Of a DNA stretch of 64,000 nt, positions 7,866 to 55,415 are shown in pieces. Both the position numbers and the translations under genes were made by a program. How positions within the stretch are numbered: position 1 is the stretch's first letter; the number at the start of each line of letters is the position of its first letter. The notes under the pieces were generated by a model that worked only from the letters and a program-made list of their open reading frames with translations, had not been told where the DNA came from and searched no databases. The DNA is from Arenicola marina (Eukaryota > Annelida > Polychaeta > Arenicolidae), in contig OZ025260.1 in assembly GCA_964019135.1 (NCBI GenBank), positions 28,824,254 to 28,888,253 on the forward strand, written 5' to 3'.

Positions 7866-8870
7866 ATGAGACCTCCCCGCGTGCGCGGTATACAACACCT
7901 GATTAGCAGCTCATAAGCCAAGCCCGCGGTCACAGCTTGCTCATCCACTCCCGGCAGTGTCATCAGTGTCAAATATCGCGAGACATAGCGAGGCTTGGAC
8001 CAAGGCCATGTCCGGTATGAAATGCGATGTTGTTGGCCAGCTTGCCGTAGATGTGATGTAGAAGTCCCAGCGACCACACGTATGAAGAGAGCCTTGCTGC
8101 AGTCTGCCTGGCCGCTGGCTTAAACACGATACCGCCCCTAAACCATCGACGGCTAGCTGCGAGTAATCGAGTATTGTTACACGCGCAAAGCTGCAAGTCG
8201 CACTGTGAAAGCCATTTGTTGATCAATTATGGATATATACCAGACCGGATAAGCTTCAAGGTGGGAAATGGATGAGCACTATGCATGGCACAATATGATT
8301 TACAGTTAAAACTGTTAAACCGTAAAACTGTTAAACCGTAAAACGGTTAAACCGTAAAACTGTTGAACCGATTTAAACCGCCAACGCAACGGCAGTTCTC
8401 TAGCAATCGAGGTCTGGCGGTTTAAACGCTATATCATATATAGATCTACATCAATAATGACATTGACGGCTACATTTTCGGTGGGTTTTGTCTGCCTATG
8501 AATCAGGAAGTTGCTTGAGTAATCACTATTGCCATGTGCAGACAGTGAGATATAATGCGATTGGTATATTGAATACGTTTGTTGTTTTTCCACACGGTTA
8601 TGCATTGATATGAAAATCAAAATTATAAAACATTTTAAGGCAAAAACTCGTTTTAACAATTTTTCAAACGGGCGGCCCGTGGTTTATTGATGGAAGCAAT
8701 GAAGGAAGTAAGGTTAAATTTTGCAGTTCGATGGCTCACAAACGTCAGGTTATCGATCTTGGTATTCCAGTCGCTGACAGCGCTGTGTATTAAATATATG
8801 GACGGGCGGCGCGTGCTCCGGGTGCAAGCAACATGGATGGAATCTCACAGTGGACACATGTACGGCACCT
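7866..8870. other. Intergenic, small 16-bp repeat at 8300-8372
   Basis: ACTGTTAAACCGTAAA repeats about four times at 8300-8372. The rest is unique-looking and partly AT-rich; no supported gene. Confidence 0.5.
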
Positions 8871-10022
8871 CTTACCTCACTCCCTATCTCAACCCTTGCC
8901 TCACTCCCTATCTCAACTCTTACCTCACTCTCTATCTCAACCCTTACCTCACCCCCTATCTCAACCCTTACCTCACTCCCTATCTCAACCTTTACCTCAC
9001 TCCCTATCTCAACCCTTACCTCACTCCCTATCTCAACCCTTACCTCACTCCCTATCTCAGCCTTTACCTCCCTCCCTATCTCAACCCTTACCTCACTCCC
9101 TATCTCAACCCTTACCTCACTCCCTATCTCAACCCTTACCTCACTCCCTATCTCAACCCTTACCTCACTCCCTATCTCAACCCTTACCTCACTCCCTATC
9201 TCAACCCTTACCTCACTCCCTATCTCAACCCTTACCTCACTCCCTATCTCAACCCTTACCTCACTCCCTATCTCAACCCTTACCTCACTCCCTATCTCAA
9301 CCCTTACCTCACTCCCTATCTCAACCCTTACCTCACTCCCTATCTCAACTCTTACCTCACTCCCTATCTCAACCCTTACCTTACCCCCTATCTCAACCCT
9401 TACCTCACTCCCTATCTCAGCCTTTACCTCACTCCCTATCTCAACCCTTACCTCACTCCCTATCTCAACCCTTACCTCACTCCCTATCTCAGCCTTTACC
9501 TCCCTCCCTATCTCAACCCTTACCTCACTCCCTATCTCAACCCTTACCTCACTCCCTATCTCAACCCTTACCTCACTCCCTATCTCAACCCTTACCTCAC
9601 TCCCTATCTCAACCCTTACCTCACTCCCTATCTCAACCCTTACCTCACTCCCTATCTCAACCCTTACCTCACTCCCTATCTCAACCCTTACCTCACTCCC
9701 TATCTCAACCCTTACCTCACTCCCTATCTCAACCCTTACCTCACTCCCTATCTAAAACCCTTACCTCACTCCCTATCTCAACCCTTACCTCACTCCCTAT
9801 CTAAAACCCTTACCTCACTCCCTATCTCAACTCTTACGTCACTCCCTATCTCAACCTTTACCTCCCTCCCTATCTCAACCCTTACCTCACTCCCTATCTC
9901 AACCCTTACCTCACTCCCTATCTCAACCCTTACCTTACTCCCTATCTCAACCCTTACACTCTTTACCTCACCCTTTACCTCACCTCTTTACCTCACCCTT
10001 TACCTCACCCATTACCTCACCC
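8871..10022. repeat. 24-bp minisatellite, about 47 copies
   Basis: Core CCTCACTCCCTATCTCAACC at 24-bp spacing. Because 24 is divisible by three and the unit lacks stops, all three + frames stay open (YLTPYLNP, SQPLPHSL and STLTSLPI repeats), including a 453-codon frame from 8687. Confidence 0.97.
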
Positions 10023-11165
10023 ACTCACTCCTATCCCCTGTGTTCTAACAAGGCATGCGGCTGAATACAAACACGGTGCACATTCACATACAATGATGGC
10101 CGACTTCACACACCTACCGACTAAAACCAAACTGTAAGACACGCCTTTATTCGACCTTAGTGACGTATATCCGGTAAAAAGTTCGGACTAGCGGGACTGA
10201 TTGAGTATGCATGGCTTGTGGGACGGATGTGGGCCATGTTGGATTACGGCGGCTGGTTTTGGCATGCGCGATGACACTTCCGACTGTAGACAGTAGACTT
10301 ACGACAGTACACTGTAGACTGGAGACTGTAGTCGGCGTGTCCCGAGTCGCTGGAAGGTCTCTACAGCCCGCGCCATGGTCAGAGTGAATCACCGGCGGGC
10401 GAGATCGGATTTATGATACTTATAAATATTCACAACGCAACCTTTCAGTACTTTTACCAGCCCAACAGGCCTTTAATTCTCTCTTGGATCCCGAAGATTA
10501 CGCGACACCCTGGTCTGGCTCAAAGCAGAGCAGCTGCCAACGCCGAGTGACCTATACAGGAGAGTGTGTGGGTCTGTGTGGGGTGGAGTGGGGGGTGGGG
10601 GGAGGTGGGGGGTGGTAAGTGTGGCCCTGTCACCGTACGAGCCGGGGAGCTGGTGTAATGTGGGCTGGAAGGGGGGCGGGGGTGCTGGAAGGCTTCGTTC
10701 TGCGTCATCCATTGTATCTACCCGCTAACGGTTGCCCCGTGGATCACTGTGACATCAGACACAGCACAGCACACCACGCCCCTTTACAGATTAGCCTACA
10801 ATGCCATCAACAGAACAGCCATCCTCTTGCGCATTTGTGTTACAAGCAACGCTCATAATCCGACGCCGCGACGACACCCTGCAGTGCCGCCATCTCGCGG
10901 GCCACGCCGTGTTTATGATACCGCGAAATGTGCTGCCACCAAGTGGTCGATGCCGTTACGACGTTGCCGCCGGCTATGCGGACGCCGCAGTCTGTAGAAA
11001 GATCTATAGACGCACAGGGCGTAGGTAGTTTCCACATATCACAAATCATACTGGAGGAGGATATTCGATACGGATACAGGTGTGTGTCGGAGTCAAGCAA
11101 AATTGACTGAATTCAATACACGGTTGAAATGATGGGCTGAGTGAGTCACGGCGTCTCGTGCGATT
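10023..11165. other. Intergenic, no gene recognised
   Basis: Mixed-composition DNA, with CpG-rich stretches at 10240-10400 and 10850-11010 and G-rich 10560-10690. I see no conserved protein, splice structure or RNA gene. Confidence 0.5.
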
Positions 11166-14571: not shown

Positions 14572-14761
14572 CATTACCACGCAGACGGAAGTCTCGGGGA
14601 AGACTTATTAGATTCGCATAATGGTAACATAATTGTTGGCTCGCCTTACGCCCTCCTGGGAAGAGGTAACAATGTGAAGCGAGAGTGCCGCATTCATAGA
14701 CCATTGGGATCCAAAGCTGTGCGAGCGGTGGATCTCAAGTTCACGGGGGCCTATTGATTGG

Positions 14762-15808
14762 CCAACTCGAGGGGGTTGTCTCCCTGCGTGTGTCTGAGGC
14801 GTCATCCTGGCAACACGAGGAGGTTGTCTCCCTGGGTGTGTGTGAGGCGTCATCCTGGAAACACGAGGGGGTTGTCTCCCTGGGTGTGTGTGAGGCGTCA
14901 TCCTGGCAACACGAGGAGGTTGTCTCCCTGGGTGTGTGTGAGGCGTCATCCTGGAAACACGAGGGGGTTGTCTCCCTGGGTGTGTGTGAGGCGTCATCCT
15001 GGAAACACGAGGGGGTTGTCTCCCTGGGTGTGTGTGAGGCGTCATCCTGGCAACTCGAGGGGGTTGTCTCCGTGGGTGTGGGGGAGGCGTCATCCTGGCA
15101 ACTCGAGGGGGTTGTCTCCCTGGGTGTGTGTGAAGCGTCATCCTGGCAACACGAGGGGGGTTGTCTCCCTGGGCATGTGTGAGGCGTCATCCTGGCGACA
15201 CGAGGGGGTTGTCTCCCTGGGTGTGTGTGAGGCGTCATCCTGGCGACACAAGGGGGTTGTCTCCCTGGGTGTGTGTGAAGCGTCATCCTGACAACACGAG
15301 GGGGGTTGTCTCCCTGGGTGTGTGTGAGGCGTCATCCTGGAAACACCAGGGGGTTGTCTCCCTGGGTGTGTGTGAGGCGTCATCCTGGAAACACCAGGGG
15401 GTTGTCTCCCTGGGTGTGTGTGAGGCATCACCCGGCAACACGAGGGGGTTGTCTCCCTGGGTGTGTGTGAGGCGTCACATGGCAACACGAGGGGGTTGTC
15501 TCCCTGGGTGTGTGTGAGGCGTCACCCGGCAACACGAGGGTGTTGTCTCCCTGGGTGTGTGTGAGGCGTCATCCTGGCAACACGAGGGTGTTGTCTCCCT
15601 GGGTGTGTGTGAGGCGTCACATGGCAACACGAGGGGGTTGTCTCCCTGGGTGTGTGTGAGGCATCACCCGGCAACACGAGGGGGTTGTCTCCCTGTGTGT
15701 GTGTGAGGCGTCACCAGGCAACACGAGGGGGTTGTCTCCCTGGGTGTGTGTGAGGCGTCACCCGGCAACACGAGGGGGTTGTCTCCCTGGGTGTGTGTGA
15801 GGCGTCAC
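14762..15808. repeat. 48/44-bp minisatellite, about 22 copies
   Basis: GGGGGTTGTCTCCCTGGGTG then tgtgtgaggcgtcatcctggcaac; the 5' part uses 48-bp units (atcctggcaac), the 3' part increasingly 44-45-bp units (acccggcaac, acatggcaac). Confidence 0.96.
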
Positions 15809-16398
15809 CTCCTGATGTAACGGCTACAACCAGGGGCGTGGTGCATCCACCGCTGGCGTTTATTAACGCCTGTAGCTGATCATTTATTGTTTTACTAAAG
15901 GTCACTGCCCGAGGAGGGGTGAGTGCGGGATGAGGGCGGAGGGGGTGCGGCAGGAGGGGTGGGTGCGTCATGAGTCAGGGAGGGGTGCGAGAGGATGGGT
16001 GGGTGCGGGATGAGTGGGGAAGAGGTGCGAGGGGTGGGGTATTGAGCTGGAAAGTGGCCACCCCATGGAGTTATGCCCTTCGTTGGCAGCAATAATACCG
16101 GGTTTAGGCTGTGAAGGGCGCTGGGGGGGAGGGGGGGGGCTGTGGGGGGTGACCCTTCACACCATCGGCTGTTCCAATCATTATCACAGGTGGTGTCGTG
16201 GCCCCTGGCTTAGCCAATAGGTCATCTAATTCAGCTATTGCTCCATGTAGCCCATGGACTGTCAACAGGTACCATCATTTGCAATGTATAATGCACAACT
16301 TGGCGTCCTTGGTCACTGTGAACCCCGATGCCCGGCCCCGATGTGTTGGGACAGTACACCTACCCACGCGCATTAAGTGGCTGTTTTTATTGCCCTTG
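15809..16398. other. Spacer upstream of TRPC, no gene recognised
   Basis: G-rich imperfect repeats at 15915-16040 (ggtgggtgcgggatgag) and a G-run near 16118-16138. No promoter for TRPC could be recognised here. Confidence 0.45.
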
Positions 16399-16977: not shown

Positions 16978-17889
16978 ATGAGGGGTAGCTCTCGCACCTC
17001 GGGGCGCGCCATCCCCATCCCCCTGGGGCCCCTGAAGGAGGGTCACAGAATGGACCCCCAGGAGCGAATCTTCCTGGAGGCGGCGGAGCGGGGGGACAAA
17101 CACACCCTGGTGCGCTGCCTGCGCGGCCCCACGTCCGTCAACGTCAACTGCACCAACATCCTGGGGCGGTCCGCCATCCAAATCGCCGTCGATAACGAAA
17201 ATATCGAGATCGTCGAGTTACTACTACGCCAAGACGGCGTCAAAATCGGGGATGCTTTACTATACGCCATCCGCGAAGGGGTGTACAGTATAGTGGAGAT
17301 GCTGATTGACCACCCCAGCATCACCCGAGAGATGCTGGGGTCCGATTGGGCGCGGTGCAAACGCACCGAGGAGGAGAGCTCGGATTACTCTCCGGACATA
17401 TCACCCGTGATCCTAGCGGCGCATTGCAACCAGTTCGAGATCCTCCAACTGCTGTTGTCCCGCGGAGCCAAGATCGAGCGTCCCCACGTGAACACATGCT
17501 CCTGCCAGAAATGCCTTAACCAGATGCAGGAGGACAGCTTACGGCACTCCCTGCTCCGGATCCACACATATCGCGCGCTGGCGAGCCCCGCCTGGATCTC
17601 GCTGACCAGCTCGGACCCCGTGCTCACGGCCTTCAAGCTGTCCTGGGAGCTGGAGCATCTAGCCATGCGGGAGAACGAGTTCAAGGACATCTACGCCGAG
17701 CTTAGCGAGCAGTGCAAGAAGTACGTCTGCGACCTGCTGGACCAGTGTCGCAGCAGCGAGGAGGTCATCGCCGTCCTCAACAAGGAGACCGACTCGGAAG
17801 TCGAGGATAGCGACGACGACGACGAGGTGGACCAGGAGAAGATCACCCTAGCCCGCTTCAAGCTGGCCCTCAAGTATCAACAGAAACAG
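16978..17889 (+). CDS. TRPC4/5-like: TRPC exon 1: ankyrin repeats, zinc motif, TRP_2
   Basis: Residues 1-304, phase 0 at the donor (CAG then gtcagt). It carries the N-terminal cytoplasmic ankyrin repeats (for example [20 protein letters not shown]), the [19 protein letters not shown] helix pair, and [11 protein letters not shown], whose H170/C174/C176/C179 reproduce the H-x3-C-x-C-x2-C zinc site known from TRPC4/5 structures. DSLRHS and [19 protein letters not shown] match the TRP_2 (PF08344) core. An acidic stretch ([13 protein letters not shown], about 274-286) precedes [14 protein letters not shown]. The start is uncertain: ATG 16978 follows an in-frame stop at 16891, and ATG 17050 (MDPQER) lies in a stronger context (A at -3, G at +4). 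GC-rich codon use. Confidence 0.95.
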
Positions 17890-20800
17890 GTCAGTGCGCT
17901 CCGTAACCCCTTCCACCCCCTCCACCCCCTCCACCCCCCCTGGGACTGCTCCTGTATCATCGACACAGCGTCGCACTGTCATGGAAAGCGGTTAGGTGAC
18001 AGCAGAATGTTAGGCTCTTCCCAGATAGCATGTAAACGTTAATGTACCGTTAGATTTTGGTTAGAATGGTTACGACGTTAAACAAACGTTTATGTGTCGT
18101 TTACAAATAAATGTTAGCAAGTTAAGCTGAAATTAACGTTAGAAAAACGTTGAAAAAAAAAAACCTAGGATCACAACCAAAAAGTCCATTTCAATATATA
18201 AATTGTTGGTTGAAACAAGGTTTTCGGCTACTTTGCAAAGTTAAACTAACGTTTATTTTTCGTTTACTGATAAACGCTTGCGAGTTAGACTGATAATTAG
18301 CGTTAGAAAAACGTTTACCAAAAAAAGGTCGCAGCTGAAAAGTGATCGAAATTTTAAACATATGGAAAAAGAAGGGCAAATAAAATAATTCATTTCAATA
18401 ATAGTTTTTCGAATACAAGTTTGGAGATTACATAGTCACATAAGATTAATTTTGTCTTTATATTAATTTGAACCATTTGATACAGGTCTAATATAAAGCA
18501 GGCTTCGGTAGGGCAATGGTTAGCTTGCGTGCCTTGGTGGAATCTCGGTGTAATCTCGCGACCGGGTTTCAATTCCCGACCTGGCGGGGATAAACTTTCG
18601 GAGGCCTATGACTTCAACCACCACACTGGTCTAAATGATGACCAACCTGGGGTCACCCTCTTGGGCAATACGCGTGTGTTACGGGATTATCTGTCTATCT
18701 ATTACATCTATTCATGTATTACTGTGGCATCTATGTATCTAGCACTGTAACATCTATGTATCTATTACTTTTAATTAACACATGTATCTATTACTTTTAA
18801 TTAACACATGTATCTATTACTTTTCATTAACACATGTATCTATTACTTTTAATTAACACATGTATCTATTAGCGTAATATCTATGTATCTATTACAACAT
18901 ACTGTCCTCTGTTCCAGTTCGTGGCTCACCCCCACTGCCAACAACTCTTGGCCTCCATATGGTTCGAGGGACTTCCGGGCTGGCGCAAGCGAAACGCCCT
19001 GGCCAAAGTGCTCATCATTGTCGGACTAATCGCGCTACTGCCCATCATGGCGACCTACTACTTATTCCTTCCGCGCAGTAAAATAGGCCAGCTGCTGCGC
19101 ACTCCCTTCATGAAGTTCATGTACCACAGCGCCTCGTTCACGATGTTCCTCTTCCTCCTCATGCTCGCCTCGACCAACGCGAGCAAGGCGGGGGAGGGGG
19201 ACCCCGGCAGGCGGCAGGAGCAGCGGGGGCCGCCCCCCACGGCGCTCGAGTGGCTGATCCTCTTCTACGTCATGGGTAGGTCCACCCCCCTCCCCTCCGG
19301 CAAACTGGGGCTGTATTCATACACCGCGCTTAGGTTACGCCAATCGACGCGTATTACAGGCGCAAGCTACCGCCTCCAAAGAAAAAGATCCCTTGGATCC
19401 AGATTTGACCCCTCGGATCCAGATTTGACCCCTTGGATCCAGATTAGACTCCTTGGGTCCAGATTAGACTCCTCAGATCCAGATTTGACCCCTCGGATCC
19501 AGATTTGACTCCTCGGATCCAGATTAGACTCCTCGGATCCAGATTAGACTCCTCGGATCCAAATTTGACCCCTCGGATCCAGATTAGACTCCTTGGATCC
19601 AGATAGACTCCTCAGATCCAGATTTGACCCCTCGGATCTAGATTTGACTCCTCGGATCCAGATTTGACCCCTCGGATCCAGAATAGGCTCCTCGGATCCA
19701 GATTATACTCCTCGGATCCAGATTTGACTCCTCGGATCCAGATTACACTCCTCGGATCCAGATTAGATTCCTCGGGTCCAGATTTGACCCCTCGGATCCA
19801 GATTTGACCCCTCGGACCCAGATTAGACTCCTCGGATCCAGATTAGGCTCCTCGGATCCAGATTTGACCCCTCGGATCCAGATTTGACCCTCGGATCCAG
19901 ATTTGACTTCATCGAATCCATATTAGACTCCTCGGATCCAGATTTTACCCCTCGCATCCAGATTTGACCCCTCGGATCCAGATTTGACCCCTCGGATCCA
20001 GATTAGACTCCTCGGATCCAGATTTGACCCCTCGGATCCAGATTTGATCCCTCGGATCCAGATTTGACTCCTCGGATCCAGATTAGACTCCTCGGATCCA
20101 GATTTGACTCCTAGGATCCAGATTAATCCCTATAAAACCCGACTGGTACCGTTGAGTAGAGACTTTATCCCTAGGATGCAGATTAAATTGTCGCATCCCC
20201 ATTGGGCCGTATTGCCGTATTCCACGAAAAGTGCATTTTCGTCGTAGCCTCACCAGGTCGCTGTGGTGCTGCTCATAGTCAAGAAATTATATATGATATA
20301 ATTCTAGCACTTGCTTAAGTTAGAAAATCCACCTCTCGGGTGAATACTTCTCTCTTTTAAACCTGATAATCGCTCGAAAAAATGTTCCACTGAGCCCATT
20401 GGCCTAGCCTAAGTTTGGATTATGAATACGGCGCCTGGTAGCTTACGCACGAAAATGCATTTTAGTCCTTAGCCCCACCATTTTAGTATTTAACCGACCC
20501 CAGAGGCGGTATTCCTAATTATAAAATTTACGAAAGTTACGCATGTTATTTTTATCTTTAGAATCGGTCGCACAGTCAGGAACATAAGCTAACACAGAAT
20601 ATATCCTTTCCTCACCTGTTAGTTATATATATATAACGTTTATGTTGAGCCCATGGTATCAGTTCAGTGCAAAGTGCAGTACATATGAGTGCGAAACTTG
20701 AAAGCATTATAGTTATATGTATCGAATGATGATCAAAATAATGAAATGTGAAATGTTAGAGAGTGTCATAAGTCTGTATGTTTTCTTAACAGATCAACTA

Positions 20801-23800
20801 TTAGATAATATGATATGAGCCTACTTGAATGACAATGGGTGAAATATTAGAAAATATGAAACTTCCATACAAAAGCGATACCATATACACATATATGATA
20901 TCAGCCTTACGTTTTCATAACAGATCAAAATTAGGGAATGTGATATATAGGCATACATGAATGATAATTTGGCGAAATATTAGACTTATACCTCATATGG
21001 CTTAAATTTTGAATTGAAAAACGGCTTCTTTAACTAAGGGGGGGGGGTCCGGACCTCCTGGACCCCCCCCCCCTCTCCTCCATCCGCCCTTGCATAATTA
21101 ATATTGAACAAAATAACAGCTGCATATCAGAGTGATAACATGGTACAGTAGACAACATTACACAGACCACCACTCACCGAGTGCTTATGCATGTTTGATG
21201 ATAGCCGGTGAGCTGTATCGGCGCGGGGTGTGTTAGGCAGGCCATGCCTAATGATTTAACTGAGATGGAAGTGGCTGGATGGGGATGTCGAGTGGCTTGG
21301 GGTGGGGGTGTCGGGCGCCGCGGGGTGGGGGTGGGGGGTGTGGGGGGTGTCGGGCGGCGCGGGGTGGGGTGGGCGATAAAAGGGAGCGCCAAGTGACCCA
21401 GCACCTGTCCCGTTCTCTGCTGGTTTATAAGGGGTTAGCGACATGATTTGATGGGAGTATGTTTGCTTCTCGTGCATTATAGACGTCACCTAAGTGGCTA
21501 CCGTGCCTGGGCTATGGGGCCTGGGCTATGGGGCCTGGCTCTCACCTGTGAACCTATGAGGCAGGTACCTGGACAGTGGGATATGAATATAATACTATCC
21601 AGGCTAAGCTTCCATGCTTGGCTAGTGTAGCACATTGATACATAACCCTCGAATGTAGGTTGACCAGATGCAATACGTGCACCTAATATCACTGTTACTA
21701 TTATTTCCCATTTGACTAATCATTGCTTCACTAGTCACTCTCAAACTACTGCATTTTCCATGTATATGTTGTCCTATTGATAATGGTGTCGCTGTATGTG
21801 GGGTTGGGGGGTGGGGGGGTTGGGGGGGCTCATCCGGTGAAGGTAGGGCAATAGTTGACTCAATGGCCAGTGCCCTTATGCCGCGACCGTTTCGAACTTA
21901 CGGACCCAGGCAAGAAGTTAAAGTGATAAACCACGCTTATTAATGCTGAGGCATTGTTGCAATATTGCGTCTTGCGTATGGGGACAACTGGTCTTATGGG
22001 CCGTATTCATCACCCGGACCAATGCCTTCTCGGGTACTGGGATAATGCTAATTAATAAGGTTTATCTCTCACTTCTCTACTACCATCGTGACGCTATGAG
22101 AACATTATACGGGTAATTAGGTAATTAAGGGATAAATCTTATTAATAACGTGTATCTGTCACTTCTCCACTGCCATCCTGATGCTATGAAGGCATTATGG
22201 GGGTAATGAAGTAAGTCATTAATCAATTAATTAATTAACTATTTAATCATGGTGAATTGTTTGCTCTCCTCGTGACGTCATGGGGGTCACGTCAAGTTAA
22301 TCAACCCATTGATGTAAGTTGCCTCTGTAAAACTTTTGAAGCCAATAAAAAAATATATCATGGGGTGATTAATGAATGAATGAATGAATTAATTAATTAA
22401 TCATTGTGAATTGCTTGTTTCCCTCCGACAGGCTTCGTGTGGGCCGAGTGCAAGCAGCTCTGGGACGAGGGACTCAAGGCCTACGTCCGCCAATGGTGGA
22501 ACTGGCTCGACTTCATCATGCTGTCCCTGTACCTGTGCACGTTTTCCCTGCGCCTCGTCGCCTACATCCAGTCGCTGTACCCGGACCGCTACGGCCCCGG
22601 CTTCATGCCGAGGACCAGCTGGCCCGAGGCCGACCCCACGCTCGTCTCCGAGGGCGTCTTCGCCATTGCCAACGTCTTCAGCTTCGCGCGCATCATCTAC
22701 CTGTTCCAAGCCAACCCCCAGCTCGGGCCGCTGCAGATCTCCCTGGGCTGTATGCTCATCGACATCGCGAAGTTCTTCGTCATCTTCTTCCTCGTCATCA
22801 CGTCGTTCGCGTGCGGGTTGAACCAGTTGTATTACTTCTACTCCAACCAGGACGTTATCGTTATGACGCGCACCGACCCCAACGGGACGCAGTATAACGA
22901 GACGGTGCCAGCCGATGTCGACTTCGAGAACGCCTTCGATCCGTAAGTAGATTGATATATTATATTTATATATTTATTATTGTTATATTAAGTATACGTG
23001 ACACCTTTTGCAGTCAGTAAATGCTGCGTGTCATGAGAGGACAATTATTGCGGTCAGTCCTTATTGTATGCAGATCACAGAACATTGTTATTATGCCATG
23101 TGGGATTTGTTAAAATTGATCTTATTTGAGAAGTTGTGTGAGCGATAATGGGGCGTCGTTGCCACGTGGTCGTTGGTTGCTACTTTAATAAGCAACATTG
23201 ATTGTAATAGGCAGATCACAGAATATTATAATTCTGCAATGTCGGAGATGTTAAAATTTATCTTTTTTGAGAGGTTGGGTGAGCGATAATGGGGCGTCGC
23301 TGCCACGTGGTCGTTGTTGCTACTTTAAGTAAGCAACAGTGATTACAATGGCAGGGTGGCTTTATATTAGCCAATTTATTCTTGCCGTTTTAATACTGTT
23401 CAATCATATTTAATGCCTTTAACCGCCCAAAGTATTGTTGTCAAAATGTGGAAATTGCGAATTGTAGCGGACGTCTATGGGTTATGAACAGATTACTGCC
23501 CACTTTGTATTCTCACTAAATAGAAGTTGCCTGGTAGTAAGGCTCTGAGTGTCCACCGCCATGAGGCAAATGTACTACAACAGCTTGAATCGGCGACCTA
23601 TATGAACCGCCCTTACTACACTGACCACCTGGCGCAGTGTAATCAATGACATCCAGGTGTGGAGGGCCTCCTGAGGGACAACCCTGGCTGGATGGCCTCT
23701 TGCCCAGCCTGCTGAGCGCTGTGCAGGTCTGGCAGTCAGCATAGCGGCACATGCACATGCACTGGCTGCGGCATAGGCATAGCATGGCCACTGCATTTCC

Positions 23801-26800
23801 ATCGCATGAATTTCAAAATTTGGAAAATGGAAAAATTAATATCTTCAAATGGGACATCGTAAAAAATATATAGTTTGTTACTTTGGTTAGATGAAACCAG
23901 ATTAGATGAATACTGTTACTATATATACAAATCGCTCTCCCCTGGATTGACAAATTCGGGTGATTTAGTATGATTGCTATGACCACATTAATTGCACCAG
24001 GCACTTTACATGGACGGTGAGTGGCCGCCTCTATAGCTCAGTGGGTTAGAGCGGTCGCTCTGGCCAACTGAGAGCCTAGCGGCGCGTGGGTCGGTGGTTC
24101 GTACCCCGCTGTAGTCATGTCTGTGCGGTCGCAGGAGAACAATTCCATGTCCTTCTTCGCAAAGTGTAGGGGGTTACCCCCGGGGACATGGGTCCGATCT
24201 TCCTTATCCCATTGACGCGATATGACCAGAAGTGGTTAAAGCGTCCTGAATATAAAACAACCAACAGTATGGACGGTGAATATTATGATAGGTCTGCATT
24301 TGACGTCATTGAGGCGCTGTGGTCGCTGCCCTCTGGGAATATTGGTCCCATTCTGAGGACTCTGGGTTTTGCCCTTTGATCGCCGACTGACAAAACCCTA
24401 ACGCGTCAGCTGCGTTGTAATGAGGGTCAATACGTGGACACTATGCTGAGAAACACTGGTATCCCGATGGGCGGCAGCTATGCCAGCGTCAGGTCAACTC
24501 CACTTCAACCCAAAATATACCTAACAATTGGATATGCATTAAATGTCAATGTTCTCCACTCGGGGGAGGGAGGGAGGGAGAGAGGGGAGGGAGTTATCGC
24601 CCTACAGCATGGACCATGTGCTACTTATAGTCGATAATAGAGAATAACCCTACCGACCACGTGCCACTAATAGTCGATAATAGAGAATATCCCTAATGAC
24701 CACGTGGCACTAACGGTCGATAATAGAGAATATTCATCAGAACACTTGCCACTAATAGCCGATAATAGAGAATATCCCTAATGACCACGTGCCACTAATA
24801 GTCGATAATAGAGAATATCCCTAATGTCGTGTATGTTAACCACCCCTCCGTCGCGCCGCCAGGCTGTTGGACAGCTACGGGACGTTGTTCTGGTCGCTGT
24901 TCGGCCTCACCATGTTGGACACGGTCCGTAAGGGCCACATGCAGGCCTACACGAAGACCGTGGGCGAGTCGCTGCTCATGGTCTACCACATGTTGGCCGT
25001 CATTGTGCTCATTAACATGCTCATTGCCATGATGTCTACGTCATTCCAAGAGATCGAGGTAACACTCTCCAACAGGTGGCGCTCACAGCAATCCCTCCAC
25101 GTGTGTTTGTGTCGGTGGATGGATGGATGGCCATGTTCCTTATATACGTGGCCATTTCTATACAAGTCGTGCATTCTCAACCGGTAGATGTCGCTCGCTG
25201 GAAGAATAATTCACGGCATCTGCCATTGCCTCTGTCAGTTGTTTTCTTTCCTTGCGCAAAAACGAAATTGTCAGTAGCGATAATCAATTTTAAAGCTGAA
25301 ATCAATGCAATGGTTCTTGGTCCTGTACACACCACTGATTGCACATCGGGCGACATTTAACAAACGATATCAAAGGCGAGCATAATTACTATTTGATTGA
25401 TTACGCGTCAAGTTCTTTAATTAAATTTGGCCTCAGGACAAATAATAGGTGTAATGCTACCTAACTGGGTCAAAGAACAATATCAGATGTACTGCGACCT
25501 AACTGGGTCAAAGAACAATATCAGATGTACTGCGACCTCAAAGAACAATATCGGATCTACTGCGACCTAACTGGGTCAAGGAATATTATTGTATTGCGAC
25601 CTAACTGAGTCAAGGAATATTAGTGTATTGCGACCTAACTGGGTCACGGAATAGTATTGAATGTATTGCGACCTAAGTGGTCACGGAAGAATAATGGCTG
25701 TATTGCGACCTGTCTGGGTCAATGAAGAATAATGGCTGTATTGCGACATAACTGGGTCAAGGAATAATGGGTGTATTTGGGTCAGTTCAGTGTTGGAGCT
25801 GAATCGAATAGGCGAGAACTGACACAGAGGCGAGCGACATCTGGCGGAGAATTTGCGTGCACTCGTTGAACTTCTGTGTATTATTGTACATACCAGTCAG
25901 TATTCCACTCCAGACAGCCAATGATATAAATCCTGTCACCCCCTGACGCCAAGTCACTTCATCGTATGATGCCTCATTGGATAATTCACTTATTTACCCT
26001 GTGCCTTTTGGTGCAATGCTGCCTGGTTTCATTCTTCGTGTGCCACACTCTGTATCTCACTGTATCGGTATCATCACATCACATTGTATCTGTATCATCG
26101 CATCACATTGTATCTGTATCATCGCATCACATTGTATCTGTATCATCACATCACATTGTATCTGTATCATCACATCACATTGTATCTTTATCATCACATC
26201 ACATTGTATCTGTATCATCACATCACATTGTATCTTTATCATCACATCACATTGTATCTGTATCATCAAATCACATTGTATCTTTATCCTCACATCACAT
26301 TGTATCTGTATCCTCACATCACATTGTATCTGTATCCTCACATCACATTGTATCTTTATCATCACATCACATTGTATCTGTATCCTCACATCACATTGTA
26401 TCTTTATCATCACATCACATTGTATCTGTATCATCACATCACATTGTATCTTTATCATCACATCACATTGTATCTGTATCATCACATCACATTGTATCTT
26501 TATCATCACATCACATTGTATCTGTATCATCAAATCACATTGTATCTTTATCCTCACATCACATTGTATCTGTATCCTCACATCACATTGTATCTGTATC
26601 CTCACATCACATTGTATCTTTATCATCACATCACATTGTATCTGTATCATCACATCACATTGTATCTGTATCCTCACATCACATTGTATCTGTATCATCA
26701 CATCACATTGTATCTGTATCCTCACATCACATTGTATCTTTATCATCACATCACATTGTATCTGTATCATCACATCACATTGTATCTGTATCCCCACATC

Positions 26801-29800
26801 TTACTGTAACGTTATCATCCCGTTGTATCTGTACCACGTCTCACCAGGCTGAGCGTGACACAGTGACCCGCTGTACACATCACCTTTCAATCACCCTTCC
26901 TCCATAAACACCGCTGTACCCATCATCTTTCAACCACCCTTCTTTCATACACACCGCTGTACACATCACCTTTCAATCACCATCCATCCATACACACCGC
27001 TTTGTACATCACCTTTCAATCACCCTCCCTCAATAAACTGTACACATCACCTTTCAATCACCATCCATCCATACACACCGCTGTACACATCACCTTTCAA
27101 TCACCCTCCCTCCATGCACACCGCTGTACATATCACCTTTCAATCACCCTCCCTCAATAAACTGTACACATCACCTTTCAATCACCCTCCCTCCTATCAC
27201 ACCGCTGTGCACCCTTCCTCCATACACGCCGCTGTGCACATCACCTTTCAATCACCCTTCCTCCATAAACACCGATGTACACATCACCTTTCAATCACCC
27301 TTCCTCCATTCACACCGCTGTGCACACCACCTTTCAATCACCCTTCCTCCATAAACACCGCTGTACACATCACCTTTCAATCACCTTTCCTCCATTCACA
27401 CCGCTGTGCACATCACCTTTCAATCACCTTTCCTCCATTCACACCGCTGTGCACATCACCTTTCAATCACCCTTCCTCCATTCACACCGCTGTGCACATC
27501 ACCTTTCAATCACCTTTCCTCCATTCACACCGCTGTGCACATCACCTTTCAATCACCCTTCCTCCTTTCACACCGCTGTGCACATCACCTTTCAATCACC
27601 TTTCCTCCATTCACACCGCTGTGCACATCACCTTTCAATCACCCTTCCTCCATTCACACCGCTGTGCACATCACCTTTCAATCACCCTTCCTCCTTTCAC
27701 ACCGCTGTGCACATCACCTTTCAATCACCCTTCCTCCATTCACACCGCTGTGCACATCACCTTTCAATCACCCTTCCTCCTTTCACACCGCTGTGCACAT
27801 CACCTTTCAATCACCCTTCCTCCTTTCACACCGCTGTGCACATCACCTTTCAATCACCTTTCCTCCATTCACACCGCTGTGCACATCACCTTTCAATCAC
27901 CCTTCCTCCTTTCACACCGCTGTGCACTTCACCTTTCAATCACCCTTCCTCCATACACACCGCTGTACACATCACCTTTCAATCACCCTTCCTCCATACA
28001 CGCCGCTGTGCACATCACCTTTCAATCACCCTTCCTCCATAAACACCGCCGTAAACATCACCTTTCAATCACCCTTCCTCCATGCACACCGCTGTACACA
28101 TCAGCTTTCAATCACCCTTCCTCCATGCACGCCGCTGTGCACATCACCTTTCAATTACCCTTCCTCCATAAACACCGCTGTGCACATCACCTTTCAATCA
28201 CCCTTCCTCCATAAACACCGCTGTACACATCACCTTTCAATCACCCCTCCTCCATAAACACCACTGTACACATCACCTTTCAATCACCCTTCCTCCTTAA
28301 ACACCGCTGTACACATCACCTTTCAATCACCCTTCCTCCATAAACACCGCTGTACACATCACCTTTCAATCACCCTTCCTCCATAAACACCGCTGTACAC
28401 ATCACCTTTCAATCACCCTTCCTCCATTCACACCGCTGTGCACATCACCTTTCAATCACCCTTCCTCCATAAACACCGCTGTACACATCACCTTTCAATC
28501 ACCCTCCCTCCTTTCACACCGCTGTACACATCACCTTTCAATCACCCTCCCTCCATAAACACCGCTGTGCACACCACCTTTCAATCACCCTTCCTCCATA
28601 AACACCGCTGTACACATCACCTTTCAATCACCCTTCCTCCATAAACACCGCTGTACACATCACCTTTCAATCACCCTTCCTCCATAAACACCGCTGTACA
28701 CATCACCTTTCAATCACCCTTCCTCCATAAACACCGCTGTACACATCACCTTTCAATCACCCTTCCTCCATAAACACCGCCGTAAACATCACCTTTCAAT
28801 CACCCTCCCTCCATTCACACCGCTGTGCACATCACCTTTCAATCACCCTTCCTCCATTCACATCGCTGTGCACATCACCTTTCAATCACCCTTCCTCCAT
28901 AAACACCGCTGTACACATCACCTTTCAATCACCCTTCCTCCATAAACACCGCTGTACACATCACCTTTCAATCACCCTTCCTCCATAAACACCGCTGTAC
29001 ACATCACCTTTCAATCACCCTCCCTCCATGCACACCGCTGTGCACACCACCTTTCAATCACCCTGCCTCCATAAACACCGCTGTACACATCACCTTTCAA
29101 TCACCCTTCCTCCATAAACACCGCTGTGCACACCACCTTTCAATCACCCTTCCTCCATAAACACCGCTGTACACATCACCTTTCAATCACCCTTCCTCCA
29201 TAAACACCGCTGTACACATCACCTTTCAATCACCCTCCCTCCATGCACACCGCTGTGCACACCACCTTTCAATCACCCTTCCTCCATAAACACCGCTGTA
29301 CACATCACCTTTCAATCACCCTTCCTCCATAAACACCGCTGTACACATCACCTTTCAATCACCCTCCCTCCATAAACACCGCTGTACACATCACCTTTCA
29401 ATCACCCTCCCTCCTTTCACACCGCTGTACACATCACCTTTCAATCACCCTTCCTCCATGCACACCGCTGTGCACACCACCTTTCAACCACCCTCCCTCC
29501 TTTCACACCGCTGTACACATCACCTTTCAATCACCCTTCCTCCATGCACACCGCTGTGCACACCACCTTTCAATCACCCTCCCTCCTTTCACACCGCTGT
29601 ACACATCACCTTTCAATCACCCTCCCTCCTTTCACACCGCTGTACACATCACCTTTCAATCACCCTCCCTCCTTTCACACCGCTGTACACATCACTAGTA
29701 TCCTCTTGTCATCCCGTGACATCGCTTGTGGACATATCACGTGACTCGAAACTTGTGGTCACGTGATAAATGTTTACCCGGCCACCATCTTGTTCCCTTT

Positions 29801-32800
29801 TCTTCTTCTCCAACGGCTGTGTCATTTGAATGTGCATAGAATTTCGGCTGTTTTTAGTTTTGTCTTTTTTCTTTGTCTTGCAGACTTGACACAGCCGTTT
29901 TAACCATGTTTTGGACGTTATTTGGACTGGTGTCGCTCGTTACCCTGCGAATCCATTTGCACTATATCCAAGGCTTCGGCAAACTTCTCTTCGGGATGTA
30001 TAACGTGGCAGCAAGGATATTGCTTCTCAACATGTTCATAGCTATGATGGCAAAGTCTTTCCACATGATTGTGGTAAGCATTATATGTATAGATGACTCA
30101 AGTGTGACGGTATATAAATATATATTCACTTCAGTTGTTTATTGTACGATTCCCCTTAATATATTTTATATTTTCTTAGATGTTTGTCAAAAAGAAACTC
30201 ATTTCAACCTTTCATGCCATTCTGCGGGGCATTTGCAAAAATACCATACTTCAAATCTACTTTTTGTAGATGAATTTGTAATCTTTTTATTTTGCACCAT
30301 GCCAAATTTATACTTCGGTCATCGAATCTTTTAGTGGTCTCCAGATGAAAAAAAAAATGAAACTTAGTTTAACCTAGCCAACGATTTGTAGTGGACACTT
30401 CTGGGGCAATATCCTTGCGGCCACCTGCCTTCCGACTGGTGCTTCTTACGTTTTACCCTTTTCATTTGTAGACGTTAAAACGTTATGTGGCGAGCTCACC
30501 CTGTCGTAGTTAGTTGGTATGAAGCATGGGTTTATTCCTTAGTCATTGCAGTGGTGTATACATATATATATATAGAATGTCTTCATACTTCGTTGTCGAC
30601 ATAAAACTGCTGGTGTAAATGTTTGTTACCAACGTTGCCAGATGGCAGTTGTATAGACGAAGTTTAAAAGCTTGTATATGCTTCCTTAGAAGGTCGTTAC
30701 CTTGATAACCATTGCCACTACCAAGTAAATATTCTGCAAACACGTTGGTGCAATGGTCTTAACATATATGTCATTTTGAGTGATAACAGCTGATGTAATA
30801 AATATTAATCCAAGTCATACATCGTAATGAAAGTACTACACCAAGTAGATTATTTTTCAATTAAAACATATTGAAGATATTGAAGTTTATATTATGACAA
30901 TAAACTTATGTGATCTGGACTAATACTTGCATTTTGGCCAAGGTATGACGCGTAAACCGTTCTTTGTGTGTGGCTGCCTGCGACCATGACAGGAACACGC
31001 AGACAGAGAGTGGAAGTTTGCCCGCTCCAACCTGTGGATGGGATACTTCGACGAGGGCTGCACGCTGCCCCCACCCTTCAACCTCATCATCAGCCCCAAG
31101 TCCATCCTCTTCTGCCTGGTCAAGATCAAGAACTTCCTGGTGGGACTGTTCCGGGGCAAGCGGCGACAGCCAATCAGACGGCGCTCTGGGGCAAGCGATG
31201 GCGGGGTCAAGGTCAGTGACACAGATGTATGGCAAGCGGCCCGAACTACTTATTGCTCGAATTTAAAATAATGTTTTTTTAAAAAGAATTTGATCAAATT
31301 AGCTGTATTATTTGTGATTACAATTTTCTTAGGATTGGTGTGAGACTTACATAGATGGACTGTTTTCTTTCATCATTTATCCGATCTACTATAATGTACA
31401 TATATCGCATGCCTCTCAACGCGAGTCCATCGCGTGCATGTCCTCATGCGCAGTCATACATTGACCTTAAATTCTCAAGTTAAACTATGGCCTTGCCCCG
31501 CAAATAGGTATAAAATATGACAAGAGCCATAGACAACAATTGTAATTGTAGCGAATGATTATCCCGCATTGAAACCATTATTTTTTTTTGACGCAGGAAC
31601 TAAATTACAAGGTAACGGCATAGATAAACTCCCACATAAGTCACATTAACTAAGTCCCCGCATAGACTTGCAGCAGCGTGTGCATCATATCGTCTCCTTA
31701 ATTGCATGAACGTTTATTGGGAGTTGGTCAAATCGTCAATCGGCATAGATCGACGTGTGAGAATGGATGTCTAGCTGCTACGCGTGACTATTTCAACATA
31801 TGCTGAATAATTTAAATATGCTGTATTTAATGCCTAGCGATGGGAAATATTCTTTGCAAGTATTTTCCGTTGATTTCATTAAGTGCTCATCGTGCTAAGC
31901 GAGTGTTAGGTTAAAAAGTGAGGTTGTGATTAAGGCTATTAGATGCAAGGCATGGCATAACTGACAAGCAGTGATCGCTTCGTGGTTTTGTACACAGATT
32001 ATATATGTTGGCCGCAAATATATAGGATTCATTTTTGGAAAAAAAGTGAGTGAAATAATTTTCAAGTATGATATCGATTAGAAATGGATGATGTTTAAGC
32101 CACAAATTGTGAAGTGTTCTTCCCATCTCTACCTCCCTTGCTGTGTGAATAACCTATAGAGCTGATTATTGCATATCATATTGGCAAATAAGAAACGTTT
32201 GTCTTTCAACAAAGAACTCTTACTTAGTCCTTAAAATCAACTGTTTTTTTTAACTGTCGAAAAGTTGTCAAAAAGTTATCTTTGTCTGCAGCTGTTACCC
32301 GTGGAAAACAATAACAAGAAAGTGAGTTTTCTCGCCCTTGCCCACATATCAAAATCCTTGAATTGGGTGTGGTTTATCGCAACAAAGTTATCGTTTTTGA
32401 CTGCTGCGATTATTTTGCCTAACGTTAAGTTTTTTTCAAGATTTATTTGGCTTCATTCAAAGTTTGGGATATGTTGCTTTGCTCACGTAAGTGAACATAG
32501 ACTATTATATAGCGTTAGTTTGTTCTGCTTTAATTTTCAGCCTTTTATTTGGCGTATGAAGTGTTCTTGTTTTTCTTTGGCATTAGGATATGCCATTACT
32601 AGGCAGTAGTGCGCCCATCCGGTGTGAGCCGCCCCCGCGCACGGTCTATGCATGCCACGTGCTGATCCGCAATCAGTGAATGACAATACTCGGCGGTTTA
32701 GCTTTATGTCTGGACTCAGCATACATACATTTTCTCACAGTGGTGGTAGAAACATCAATTACAATGTAATATAATTCCTACCTTAATTCGGACTGGGCTG

Positions 32801-38800: not shown

Positions 38801-41800
38801 GGAAGAACTGACGTCACGGATAAATTGTACGCTAATGTCCTTAATTATCGCTCGTTACATTGTCATTGGTGACCATTACAGCACAACAACACGTACAACG
38901 GCGATGCGAAGGGTTCGCCAAGCTCAGATGGACCGCCGGAGAAGACGAAATACCAGGTGAGTGTGTGGGCAGGCTAAGCCCATTAGTAGGACTTAGCCAA
39001 TAGTGTCTATGTCATTGCGCACTCTGACTAATGGACAGCGGGTTGACAATTGCTCCCAGAGCCGCGTGTTTGTACCTTGGCTGTGGCGATGTCCAGGGGC
39101 CGTATTCATAATCCCCTCGTAAGATACGCACGCAAATAGCATATAGCCTTACTAGCTCATTGCGGAGATACTCATAATTAAGAAATCTTCTTCAATGTAA
39201 TTTTAGCACTTTCTTCATTCAGAAAATCCACTTCTTGGGTGACTATTTATGCATTTTGAGCCCGATAATCGCTCGACAAATCTTCCACTTAGCGCTAAGT
39301 CTAGTGGCGTAGTTTAAGTGGCGATTGTGACTAGGGCCCCAGCACTCTAGCGCGAACATCGTTATAAATGTGACGCGTGACAAAGCCATGTGGAACACAA
39401 ACGAATCTGGAAGAAAGAGGACCTACTTTAACGGACAAATGACAACTTGGTTAGGGTAAATTAGGAAAGAGGAACATATTGGATTGTAGGCTGCTTGCTT
39501 GTCAGTCCCAGATAACGCTCGCCCTTTCACCGGATTAATTGGCTTAATCTAAAAAATATGCTACAACTATCGACGGATTGCACCTGTTTCCTGCATGATT
39601 GGTGTCGAGCCGGTCAAAATGTATCTGTTTGTGACAAGTAATTTGCTTTAAAATATTCTCAATAACGAGCTCTGGTCATTAATCTGTGTCCTATCTGTGT
39701 CTCCGCCCACTTCAACAACCAAGCTCCAGGAACATTTGCGCCGTTATTATGTAAATTAAGTAACGTTTCAAATGAATTACGGGGACACATAAATGTCCTA
39801 TAATTGTAGCTATTAGCGCCTCATGGTACCAGTTAACAGGGAGTTGGGGGGGGGGGGGCAATTGACCTGTTACCATGGCACGCTGACCTGTAGCGTGTTG
39901 GTGGAAGGGGGGGGCACCCCCACGCCCCCCCCCACCTGTGGCCTGCGGCCTGTGTGAGTCCCGCTGTCCGTCTTCTAGGCGCACACCTGAGAGCCTATCG
40001 GCACGTGGATCGGTGGTTCGCGCCCCGCTGTGGCCATGTCTGTGTGGTCGCAGGATAAAGATTCCATGTCCTTCTTCGCAAAGAGTAGGGGGTTACCCCC
40101 GGGGGACATACATGGCTCCACTGTCCCTTCCTTCTCCCATTGACGCGATACGACCCAAACGCGTCTTGAATATACAACCAAGACAACCTAGGCTGACACG
40201 TGATTTTCGCTTGTCGCCCCCAGGAGGTCATGCGGCGCCTAGTCAGCCGCTACATCCACAACTGGAAGAAGCAGATGCGACAAGACGGCGTCAACGAGGA
40301 TGACCTGCTGGAGATCAAGCAGGACATATCCAGTCTCAGGTAAACACCCTCTCATGCCCCTCCCCCACCCCTCACCTCACCTCACTCCTCTCTCACCTCA
40401 CCTCACCCCTCCCCCTCACCCCTCACTTCACGCCCCCCCCCTCCCCTCACCTCAGCCCCGCCCTCACCTCACCCACCCCTCACCTCACCTTACTCCCCTC
40501 TCACCTCACCTCACCCCTCCCCCTCACCCCTCACTTCACGCCCCCCCTCCCCTCACCTCAGCCCCGCCCCCTCCTTCACCCCCGCTCACCTCAACCCCCC
40601 TCACCTCACCCCGCCCCCCCTCACCTCAACCCCCAGCCCTCACCTCCCCCCCTCAGCCCTTTCACCCCGCTCACCTCACCCCACCCTCACGACACCTCAC
40701 TCCCCTCACCCCCCCCCCTCCCCTCACCGCCCCCCACCCCACCCCCACGCAGCTCCTTGGCTGCCCAGCTCTCTGGGCAAGGACCAGGCGCGGCAGAAAT
40801 GAGGTGAGGTACAATGTAGGGAGAAAATGTGAAATTACTGTGATTCATACATAGATAATACATACCGGATATATAATGCAAAAATGCTGTGATTCATACA
40901 TAGATAAGACATACCGGATATATAATGCATAAATACAACACAAAGGTGTAGGTTAAGGTAGAAACAGGGCGCATATACCTCTAGGCAAGGCCTTTATGGG
41001 AATATATTCTGCATAATGCCGTGCGGGGAGCGGGGGGAGGGGGCGCTGAGGCCTCCGTGGGCCAATCACTGAGCAACATTCGTTATGAAGGCTATACCAC
41101 AAAACGTGGTAATGGTGGGTGGGTTATAATATTAATGATATGTCACAGTAGAGCCCTAACGATGGCGCAGCATCAATAGGGTTGTTTTAGGGAACCGGAT
41201 TGATACAGTGAAGGTAAATTGATTCTAAATTGCTCAAGTCAGCAATAAAAGGACTCTCTATGCAAGCTGTGATTTAGATTGAAGGAAGAGTATGGCAAAC
41301 AACGCAAAACCGAATTTTTGATAACATTCCTTGTAGTATTAATAAAAAGCACGTTTTCGCGAATGTTGATGAAAAATTGCATGTGCGGGGTTCGAATCCC
41401 CTCTGTGCAAATGTCTATATTTGTGCAGGGTAAGTACAGCTTACCTTTAGATATATGTCATTTGGCGCAAGGGTAATGACGTTACTCCAGGAGACATATA
41501 GCTCATCTCTACCTTGGCCTTACCCACTGTCGCGATATGACCTACAGACTTAACAAATTAAGCTGGCTGGCCGGGTAGCCAATAGCGCCCCAAATGCTAA
41601 TTCCACAATTAGTTTGCTTGCATTAGATAGCTAGCAGGGGAATGTGCAGGAATCCTGAGGGGGGGGGGCGGGGGCTCTGAACAAAATTGCGACCAGGGGG
41701 TCCACCAATTTCTTGGCGACCAGACATAAACTACGAAGCATTGTGTGGGGGGGGGGGGGCACAGATATACGTTAATGTCTGAAAAGGAGGGGGCACAGAT

Positions 41801-49700: not shown

Positions 49701-49822
49701 GAACCCACCCTATTCTTGTCTGAACCCACCCTATCCTTGTCTGAACCCACCCTATCCTTGTCTGAACCCACCCTATCCTTGTCTGAACCCACCCTGTTCT
49801 TGTTTGAACACCCGCCCTATCC
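46743..49822. repeat. 23/21-bp minisatellite, about 135 copies
   Basis: CCCTATCCTTGTCTGAACAC with 23-bp spacing, becoming 21-bp units (..GAACCCAC) at about 49385-49800. A block marked by cccac-ctattcttgtttgg and cgctctatcc recurs near 47735, 47985 and 49120, so several-hundred-bp blocks have been copied. Confidence 0.97.
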
Positions 49823-50239
49823 TAAACCACCCCCCAACCACCCAGCCCCCACCCCTCAACTACCCAGCCCCCACCCCCCAACCACCCAGCCCCCATCTTA
49901 TCGGTGTTCGAACGCCAGTCCGAAAAGCATGATCTGCGAACGCCCGCCCTTTCTATTTTTAACCCTCCCCCCCCGCCCTCCCAACCCCACCTTCCGCTCT
50001 CTCTCTCTTCCGCCCATTCCTCTCTCACTTCACCCTGATGGCCGAAGCCGCAGTTGCCATGACACGCCGGCCCTGGGCTATGTGGCGACAACAGACCCCC
50101 GGTACTGGCATTCCGTAACGCTGGCACGTCGGCCGCGTGGCTTGCTTTCGGCATTTAGTCGCCATGGTTCACACCGCGGCAGACGTCAATTGTCAGATCG
50201 AAGTGCGTCAGCAAACGTCGCTTAGAAGTCCGTCCACGG

Positions 50240-51952: not shown

Positions 51953-52257
51953 ACCTCTGAGTTATTTTGGTTATCAGCCCCTCCCACACACAACTATCAC
52001 CTACAGGACGAGTAAATACGTTGCTGACGGAAGGAAACCAAAGGGAGAATGGGACCATAGGCCTAAGTCCCGGCTCTGTCGGTGTCTGGACTCACACGCG
52101 CTGGTCTAACTGGAACCACTCTATGGACTGACGCCTTCGCGGATAATCCCGACCCGCCAATCGATCAGCTCACTCACTTTATTCGCACACGGAATTATCA
52201 ATCATTGACCATCGATTATCGCTCTGATGTTTAATTGTCCACCCGCAATGACCCCGG

Positions 52258-55200: not shown

Positions 55201-55415
55201 TGTGTCAGGGACTGCCCTCCCACGGGGACTGGACCGCCCCGATCGCCCTGTGTCAGGGACTGCCCTCCCACGGGGACTGGACCGCCCCGATCGCCCTGTG
55301 TCAGGGACTGCCCTCCCACGGGGACTGGACCGCCCCGATCGCCCTGTGTGACTGCCCTCCCACGGGGACTGGACCGCCCCGATCGCCCTGTGTCAGGGAC
55401 TGCCCTCCCACGGTA
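52258..55415. repeat. 48/44-bp GC-rich minisatellite, about 68 copies
   Basis: CCCACGGGGACTGGACCGCC followed by ccgatcgccctgtgt, then either cagggactgccct (48 bp) or gactgccct (44 bp). The two lengths come in runs; 54190-54480 is nearly all 44-bp units. CpG-dense. Frames stay open on both strands without meaning. Confidence 0.98.

What the first reader, a model, noticed from the sequence alone, without database searches (positions are those of the whole stretch)
24863..30073. Two alternative pore exons in one TRPC gene (candidate mutually exclusive splicing)
Exons 4a and 4b both encode pore helix, selectivity filter and S6, share entry phase 2 and exit phase 0, have good splice sites, and align end to end at about 40 percent identity by eye. 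One gene could thus make two channels with different pores. I know of no described TRPC gene that swaps its pore this way; that novelty statement is from memory.
Basis: partly seen in the sequence, partly recalled or inferred. Interest (0 to 1): 0.93.

Follow-up and report, generated by a model that had tools for sequence, protein, structure and literature searches.

The report
TRPC channel gene, two pore exons
An animal (probably annelid worm) ion-channel gene carries two different, neatly interchangeable exons for the pore through which ions pass, so one gene could build two channels that differ in their pore; the second exon looks conserved but has not been shown to be used.

Summary
Window 16978-42519 (+) holds one TRPC gene (TRPC4/5- and C. 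elegans trp-1-like), probably annelid. Only its pore exon was found twice: 4a 24863-25058 and 4b 29884-30073. Both enter in phase 2, leave in phase 0 and align end to end (28 of 63 residues identical, BLASTP 3e-14). Including both puts a stop at codon 2 of 4b; skipping both shifts the frame.

4b is not a plain decayed copy: differences concentrate at third codon positions, and its TRPC-pore profile score (60.5 bits) exceeds all 5000 simulated neutral relics (maximum 54.9). But it scores below all 124 real pores, has an arginine inside S6 and lower GC3.

New here: decapod TRPC proteins of different species are 95-97% identical before this exon but 44% within it, and two Penaeus gene models (2 of 164 fetched proteins) contain both versions. 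So the pore pair is not unique to this window. Ten full-text searches listed no description in TRPC; NALCN has a published equivalent. Mutually exclusive splicing is the best explanation. No transcript data were available, and the search of the window's genome did not complete.

The parts
16978..17889 (+). Exon 1 (ATG at 16978; a second ATG at 17050): ankyrin repeats and TRP_2 domain
   Evidence: Pfam PF08344 1.9e-28 and Ank_2 7.4e-13; boundaries by splice sites and homology
18918..19275 (+). Exon 2: first part of the membrane domain
22432..22942 (+). Exon 3: further transmembrane helices up to the pore turret; ends in phase 2
   Evidence: Ion_trans PF00520 9e-17
24863..25058 (+). Exon 4a: pore helix, filter FGLT, S6, start of TRP-helix linker (65 codons)
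   Evidence: 45/64 identical to the leech pore
26054..29695 (+). Two minisatellite arrays (24-bp unit about 31 copies; 43-bp unit about 66 copies) filling most of the 4.8 kb between 4a and 4b
29884..30073 (+). Exon 4b: alternative pore helix, filter FGLV, S6 (63 codons)
30993..31211 (+). Exon 5: TRP box ([11 protein letters not shown]...), common to both forms; starts in phase 0
40221..40340 (+). Downstream coding piece ([13 protein letters not shown]...[10 protein letters not shown]); boundaries by homology only
   Evidence: 90% identical to chiton P0001 over 40 residues
42103..42519 (+). Last coding piece, ending [11 protein letters not shown]; boundaries by homology only
   Evidence: three of the four relatives; not the leech

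Best explanation
Exons 4a and 4b are a tandem duplicate pair in one TRPC gene and are spliced mutually exclusively: 3-4a-5 or 3-4b-5. Each encodes pore helix, selectivity filter and S6 of the same channel. Shown from sequence: both exons are intact and interchangeable in phase; joining both puts TGA as the second codon of 4b, 184 nt upstream of the 4b/5 junction; skipping both shifts the frame. Inferred: double-inclusion transcripts are removed by nonsense-mediated decay, so frame incompatibility (not intron length or splice-site type) makes the choice effectively exclusive, and both pores are made. Inferred consequence: the 4b pore is more basic (1 acidic and 7 basic residues, His included, against 5 and 5), changes the residue after FGL from T to V, and changes a Gln near the end of S6 to His, so permeation, block or pH sensitivity should differ.
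For: Same distance from each exon end to the FW and SF motifs; both exons of length 3n+1. Double inclusion stops at codon 661, skipping shifts the frame. Identity by codon position 33/45/22 of 63, position 2 versus 3 McNemar p 0.0002, 1 versus 2 p 0.017, 1 versus 3 p 0.10; pairwise ML dN 0.52, dS 4.7, ratio about 0.11 with dS saturated. 4b profile score 60.5 bits against 5 x 1000 neutral simulations, maximum 54.9. Third-position GC 38/63 above its upstream flank of 0.425, p 0.003. 4b keeps 12 of 14 columns that are at least 95% conserved and 13 of 18 at 80%. Only this exon was found twice, so 4b is not part of a second gene. The same exon exists in two versions in decapod TRPC: Cherax or Procambarus against Homarus, 97% and 95% identical before the pore, 44% in it, 86-88% after it; both versions stand in one Penaeus monodon and one Penaeus chinensis gene model.
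Against: No RNA evidence. 4b has the longest end branch of 51 pores (3.27 against a median of 0.22) and scores below all 124 real pores (lowest 70.6). It carries Arg inside S6 where 124 relatives have I, L, M or V (121) or S or Q (3), and loses a Gln held by 117 of 124. GC3 is 0.60 against 0.82-0.92 in the other five exons measured and not significantly above 0.5 (p 0.065). Neutral simulation from 4a alone leaves 13-19% stop-free, and the BLOSUM score alone is not decisive (9-10% reach the observed value). No protein in the database was retrieved by the 4b region. The leech Helobdella model has a 4a-like pore only. The decapod comparison is between species; in scorpion and spiders the two pore types look like separate genes. 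No exact intron complementarity over 13 bases was seen among the flanks tested, so no docking/selector structure.
Confidence: 0.62

Rival explanations
1. 4b is an old alternative pore exon that was functional for most of its history but is now decaying and is little or not used; the working gene is 3-4a-5.
For: Very long branch, score below all 124 real pores, Arg in S6 and loss of the conserved Gln, GC3 0.60 against 0.82-0.92.
Against: No stop or frameshift in 63 codons, intact AG and GT at the matching positions with a long pyrimidine tract before 4b, codon-position pattern and profile score above simulated relics. These tests show past constraint and do not exclude recent relaxation.
Confidence: 0.24
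2. 4b is used, but mainly as a regulatory or dominant-negative exon: inclusion beside 4a gives a premature stop that lowers channel amount, or 4b subunits co-assemble and silence the channel.
For: Double inclusion gives a stop 184 nt before the next junction; Arg in S6 and a basic pore could impair conduction.
Against: A poison exon need not keep a pore-like reading frame in phase 2, yet 4b does and scores as a TRPC pore. This does not speak against a dominant-negative role.
Confidence: 0.09
3. 4b was inserted from a different TRPC paralogue (or is an assembly error) and is not a duplicate of 4a.
For: The pore tree does not place 4b with 4a, and its identity to ten lophotrochozoan pores is similarly low, 34-48%. 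Long minisatellites precede it, where assemblies can err.
Against: No other exon of a second gene was found. Boundaries and phases match 4a at both ends. The AU test does not reject 4a+4b as one clade (p 0.249). A copy from a paralogue would still work as an alternative exon. The window's genome could not be searched for paralogues.
Confidence: 0.05

Closest known systems
NALCN exons 15a/15b and 31a/31b (Senatore et al. 2013, PMC3557258; passages seen; also PMC4436565, passages)
   Same: Tandem, mutually exclusive exons covering pore helices and selectivity filter (exon 15 also the start of S6) in one cation-channel gene; reported in annelids, molluscs and others; one copy lost in some lineages (exon 15a in the leech Helobdella).
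   Different: NALCN is a four-repeat channel, so one of four pore loops changes; in a tetrameric TRPC all four pores of a homomer would change, and the two exons here differ at more than half of their residues.
Decapod TRPC ('transient-receptor-potential-like') pore versions A and B, in public proteins and gene models
   Same: Same exon position (after ..AFNT, before DHADQEWK), about 44% identity between versions, both in one gene model of two Penaeus species.
   Different: Both arthropod versions are well conserved across species (A 49-65 of 65, B 46-65 of 65), while no relative of 4b was retrieved; whether 4b shares their origin is unresolved (AU p 0.536 with B, 0.216 with A).
Lymnaea Cav3 T-type alternative exons in Domain II (PMC4436565, passages)
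   Same: Alternative splicing near the pore alters selectivity in an invertebrate channel.
   Different: Changes the extracellular loop before the pore helix, not the filter and S6.

Membership tests
TRPC channel family (TRPC4/5 and trp-1-like branch) | N-terminal ankyrin repeats plus TRP_2 domain, Ion_trans domain | tested here: met
   PF08344 1.9e-28, Ank_2 7.4e-13, PF00520 9e-17
TRPC channel family (TRPC4/5 and trp-1-like branch) | Overall similarity and TRP box after S6 | tested here: met
   69% identical to chiton P0001; TRPC4 PDB chain 6e-195; exon 5 [11 protein letters not shown]
Mutually exclusive exon pair | Tandem homologous exons with identical phases inside one gene | tested here: met
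Mutually exclusive exon pair | Double inclusion or double skipping breaks the frame | tested here: met
   Stop at codon 2 of 4b on double inclusion; frameshift on skipping, with no stop inside exon 5
Mutually exclusive exon pair | Transcripts contain exactly one of the two | not testable with these tools
   No RNA data available
Mutually exclusive exon pair | Both exons conserved in related species | tested here: inconclusive
   4a-like pore in leech (45/64); no 4b relative retrieved (29 candidates, none at E<=1); no annelid genome DNA available
Mutually exclusive exon pair | Competing intronic RNA pairings (one known mechanism, recalled; not required) | tested here: inconclusive
   Only exact matches of 12 bases or more were sought, outside the minisatellites: 12 between intron 3 and the 4b downstream flank (an AT run), none between the 4a downstream and 4b flanks

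The most novel reading that the evidence does not exclude
A TRPC gene of early protostomes (or bilaterians) already carried two tandem pore exons. The pair survives in decapod crustaceans and in this annelid, was split up or lost elsewhere, and lets one gene make channels with two different ion pores chosen by splicing. Hints: in the pore tree the A clade unites crustaceans with chelicerates, insects and an onychophoran, and the B clade unites crustaceans with chelicerates and a myriapod; and the Owenia model has an odd pore: 75% identical to the window before the pore, 46% to 4a, 48% to 4b, up to 61% to arthropod type A. Grouping 4b with A, with B or with Owenia is neither supported nor rejected.
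Probability: 0.3. Interest if true: 0.8.

Novelty: new variant of a known kind. Interest (0 to 1): 0.6.

Why it matters
Swapping the pore by splicing would give cells a switch of ion selectivity or block in a TRPC cation channel without a second gene. It is described for NALCN; for TRPC the 10 full-text searches listed no description. The decapod data make it testable at once in cultured animals, and natural pore pairs of the same channel are a ready-made experiment on what sets TRPC permeation and gating.

Tried and rejected
Separate second gene: rejected, only the pore exon was found twice. A third pore copy in the window: none below E 2. Exon 4b as a plain neutral relic of 4a: disfavoured by codon positions and profile score, although the BLOSUM score and stop-free test alone were weak. 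Placing 4b in the pore tree: unresolved; AU p 0.199 with 4a and leech, 0.249 with 4a, 0.39 with Owenia, 0.536 with arthropod B, 0.216 with A. Intronic pairing between the two exon flanks: nothing beyond a 12-base AT run between flanks and 13 bases within one flank. Retrieval of 4b relatives from the protein database: none. The third protein search was mis-aimed: residues 536-625 of P0012 cover S5 and only the start of its pore, so a proper search for Owenia-like pores was not made, although it brought in P0130. Phage DNA search was uninformative. Structure prediction was not run: it would only repeat the homology.

Limits: the protein searches listed the best 120 of 2594 and the best 120 of 1792, 164 different proteins in all. 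Simulations had no indels and unknown ancestors (five stand-ins, 1000 draws each). The 124 pore segments were selected with a motif for the S6 end, so conservation of those columns is partly by construction, and 4b would fail that motif at one residue. Of the two double-pore models only the first pore entered the profile. The pore tree used 47 proteins that I chose from the 164, two segments of P0130, and 4a and 4b; the labels A and B were given by me by eye before the tree. One more protein, P0088 (Branchiostoma), has repeated pore-helix pieces but a single S6 and was not counted. Part of the C-terminal region (about residues 715-758 of P0001) has no match in the window, so the gene model may lack a piece there.
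Full report
What is there. The window carries one TRPC gene on the + strand, from start codon to C-terminus. Exons: 16978-17889, 18918-19275, 22432-22942, then two pore exons 4a 24863-25058 and 4b 29884-30073, exon 5 30993-31211, and C-terminal coding pieces at 40221-40340 and 42103-42519 ending in [11 protein letters not shown]; a short variable stretch between exon 5 and 40221 has no match. Pfam finds ankyrin repeats, TRP_2 and Ion_trans. The best database relatives of the 4a form are invertebrate 'transient-receptor-potential-like' proteins, a chiton first at 69%; the best solved structures are TRPC4 and TRPC5. A quick tree without the pore places the window next to the leech Helobdella (SH-aLRT 97), and 4a alone does the same (97/97), so the animal is most likely an annelid (inference).

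The observation. Both enter in phase 2 and leave in phase 0; they align over their whole length at 28/63 identical residues, BLASTP E 3e-14. 4b alone finds TRPC3/4/5/6 structures. tblastn of four relatives finds no other exon twice. The 4.8 kb between the two exons is largely two minisatellite arrays.

Reading-frame logic. Either exon gives an open frame into exon 5. Both together give ACT TGA at the start of 4b, a stop 184 nt before the next junction; neither gives a frameshift, without a stop inside exon 5. In this arrangement double inclusion cannot make the channel, and the common frame is kept only by one-or-the-other. That double inclusion is destroyed by nonsense-mediated decay is inferred.

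Is 4b under constraint? For: no stop in 63 codons; identity at codon positions 1/2/3 is 33/45/22 of 63, position 2 against 3 p 0.0002, 1 against 2 p 0.017, 1 against 3 p 0.10; pairwise ML dN 0.52 and dS 4.7, the latter saturated. If 4b had been free since the duplication and 4a constrained, a ratio near 0.5 would be expected (my estimate, not computed in a call); about 0.11 was found. A profile of 124 real TRPC pores gives 4b 60.5 bits; 1000 neutral drafts from each of five stand-in ancestors, matched for identity, reach at most 54.9. 4b keeps 12 of 14 columns conserved in at least 95% of pores and 13 of 18 at 80%; 4a keeps 14 of 14 and 18 of 18. Against: 4b scores below every one of the 124 real pores (lowest 70.6; 4a 99.0), has the longest branch of the pore tree (3.27), Arg within S6 where none of 124 relatives has it, His for a Gln held by 117 of 124, and GC3 0.60 against 0.82-0.92, though above its upstream flank of 0.425 (p 0.003; against 0.5 p 0.065). 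Stop-freeness alone (13-19% of drafts from 4a) and BLOSUM score alone (9-10%) are weak. Together: long constrained, fast-evolving; recent relaxation is not excluded.

The same exon elsewhere. Among the 164 proteins listed, arthropod pores fall into two types. In the pore tree A (9 rows) is a clade at 98/83 and B (11 rows) at 100/100. B holds crustaceans, chelicerates and a myriapod; A holds crustaceans, chelicerates, mayfly, damselfly and an onychophoran. Cherax (A) and Procambarus (A) against Homarus (B) are 97% and 95% identical before the pore but 44% in it; these are different species, so this alone does not show one gene with two exons. P0061 (Penaeus monodon, labelled LOW QUALITY) and P0130 (Penaeus chinensis) contain a B pore followed by an A pore in one model, with odd linkers around them: 2 of 164 fetched proteins. 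I read these as gene models that joined two alternative exons (inference). In scorpion and two spiders A and B proteins lie on contigs of different length and are 81-87% identical before the pore, so there they look like separate genes.

Origin. The place of 4b in the pore tree is unresolved, and none of five tested groupings is rejected. Owenia, an annelid, has an unusual pore: 75% identical to the window before the pore, yet 46% to 4a and 48% to 4b, and up to 61% to arthropod type A. One reading is that its model uses another exon of an old pair; its genome was not available.

What it would do. Both exons keep the FW pore helix and FGL filter. 4b has T to V after the filter, 1 acidic residue against 5 in 4a, 7 basic (His included) against 5, and Gln to His near the S6 end. 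From recalled structural work on TRPC4/5 that Gln lies at the lower gate, so gating or pH dependence could differ; this is conjecture.

Known work. NALCN has mutually exclusive pore exons 15a/15b and 31a/31b (PMC3557258, passages; PMC4436565, passages). A crab TRP survey lists four TRPC transcripts and, in the passages I saw, reports splice variants only for PKD2-like and TRPML (PMC10795286). A decapod transcriptome paper reported no TRPC (PMC5096308, passages). Ten full-text searches (three of them with no paper at all, and one showing 15 of 420) listed no paper on alternative pore exons in TRPC, judged from titles and abstract starts; subscription papers are mostly not held, so this is not proof.

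Verdict. Real, well-formed and probably functional alternative pore exon; a new variant, in the TRPC family, of a principle known from NALCN. RNA evidence is missing and would decide.

Noticed in passing
window about 8750-10050, 14600-15970, 26054-29695, 49320-49930, 52180-55450, 58280-63800: Six stretches of long minisatellite-like repeats, seen as repetitive ORFs in several frames; only 24500-31500 was measured with a repeat finder (about 66 copies of a 43-bp unit inside the TRPC gene).
   Followed up: partly
P0012 (Owenia fusiformis), pore exon: Pore unlike the ten lophotrochozoan pores compared (46-58%) although the part before it is 72-75% identical (62% to leech); nearest to arthropod type A (up to 61%). 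Its genome may hold a second pore exon.
   Followed up: partly
P0061 and P0130 (Penaeus): Gene models that contain two complete TRPC pores in a row, probably two alternative exons wrongly joined by annotation.
   Followed up: yes
P0034 (Procambarus) and P0130 (Penaeus chinensis), just before the pore: An extra 11-residue stretch (DGGEYKGGFKT / DSGEYMGSFKT) ahead of the pore exon, absent from Homarus P0039: possibly a further optional micro-exon in the turret.
   Followed up: no
window about 24030-24115: A stretch reading TCTATAGCTCAGTGGGTTAGAGCGGTCGCTCTGG..., which looks like a tRNA-derived SINE (from memory; ARAGORN reports no tRNA).
   Followed up: no
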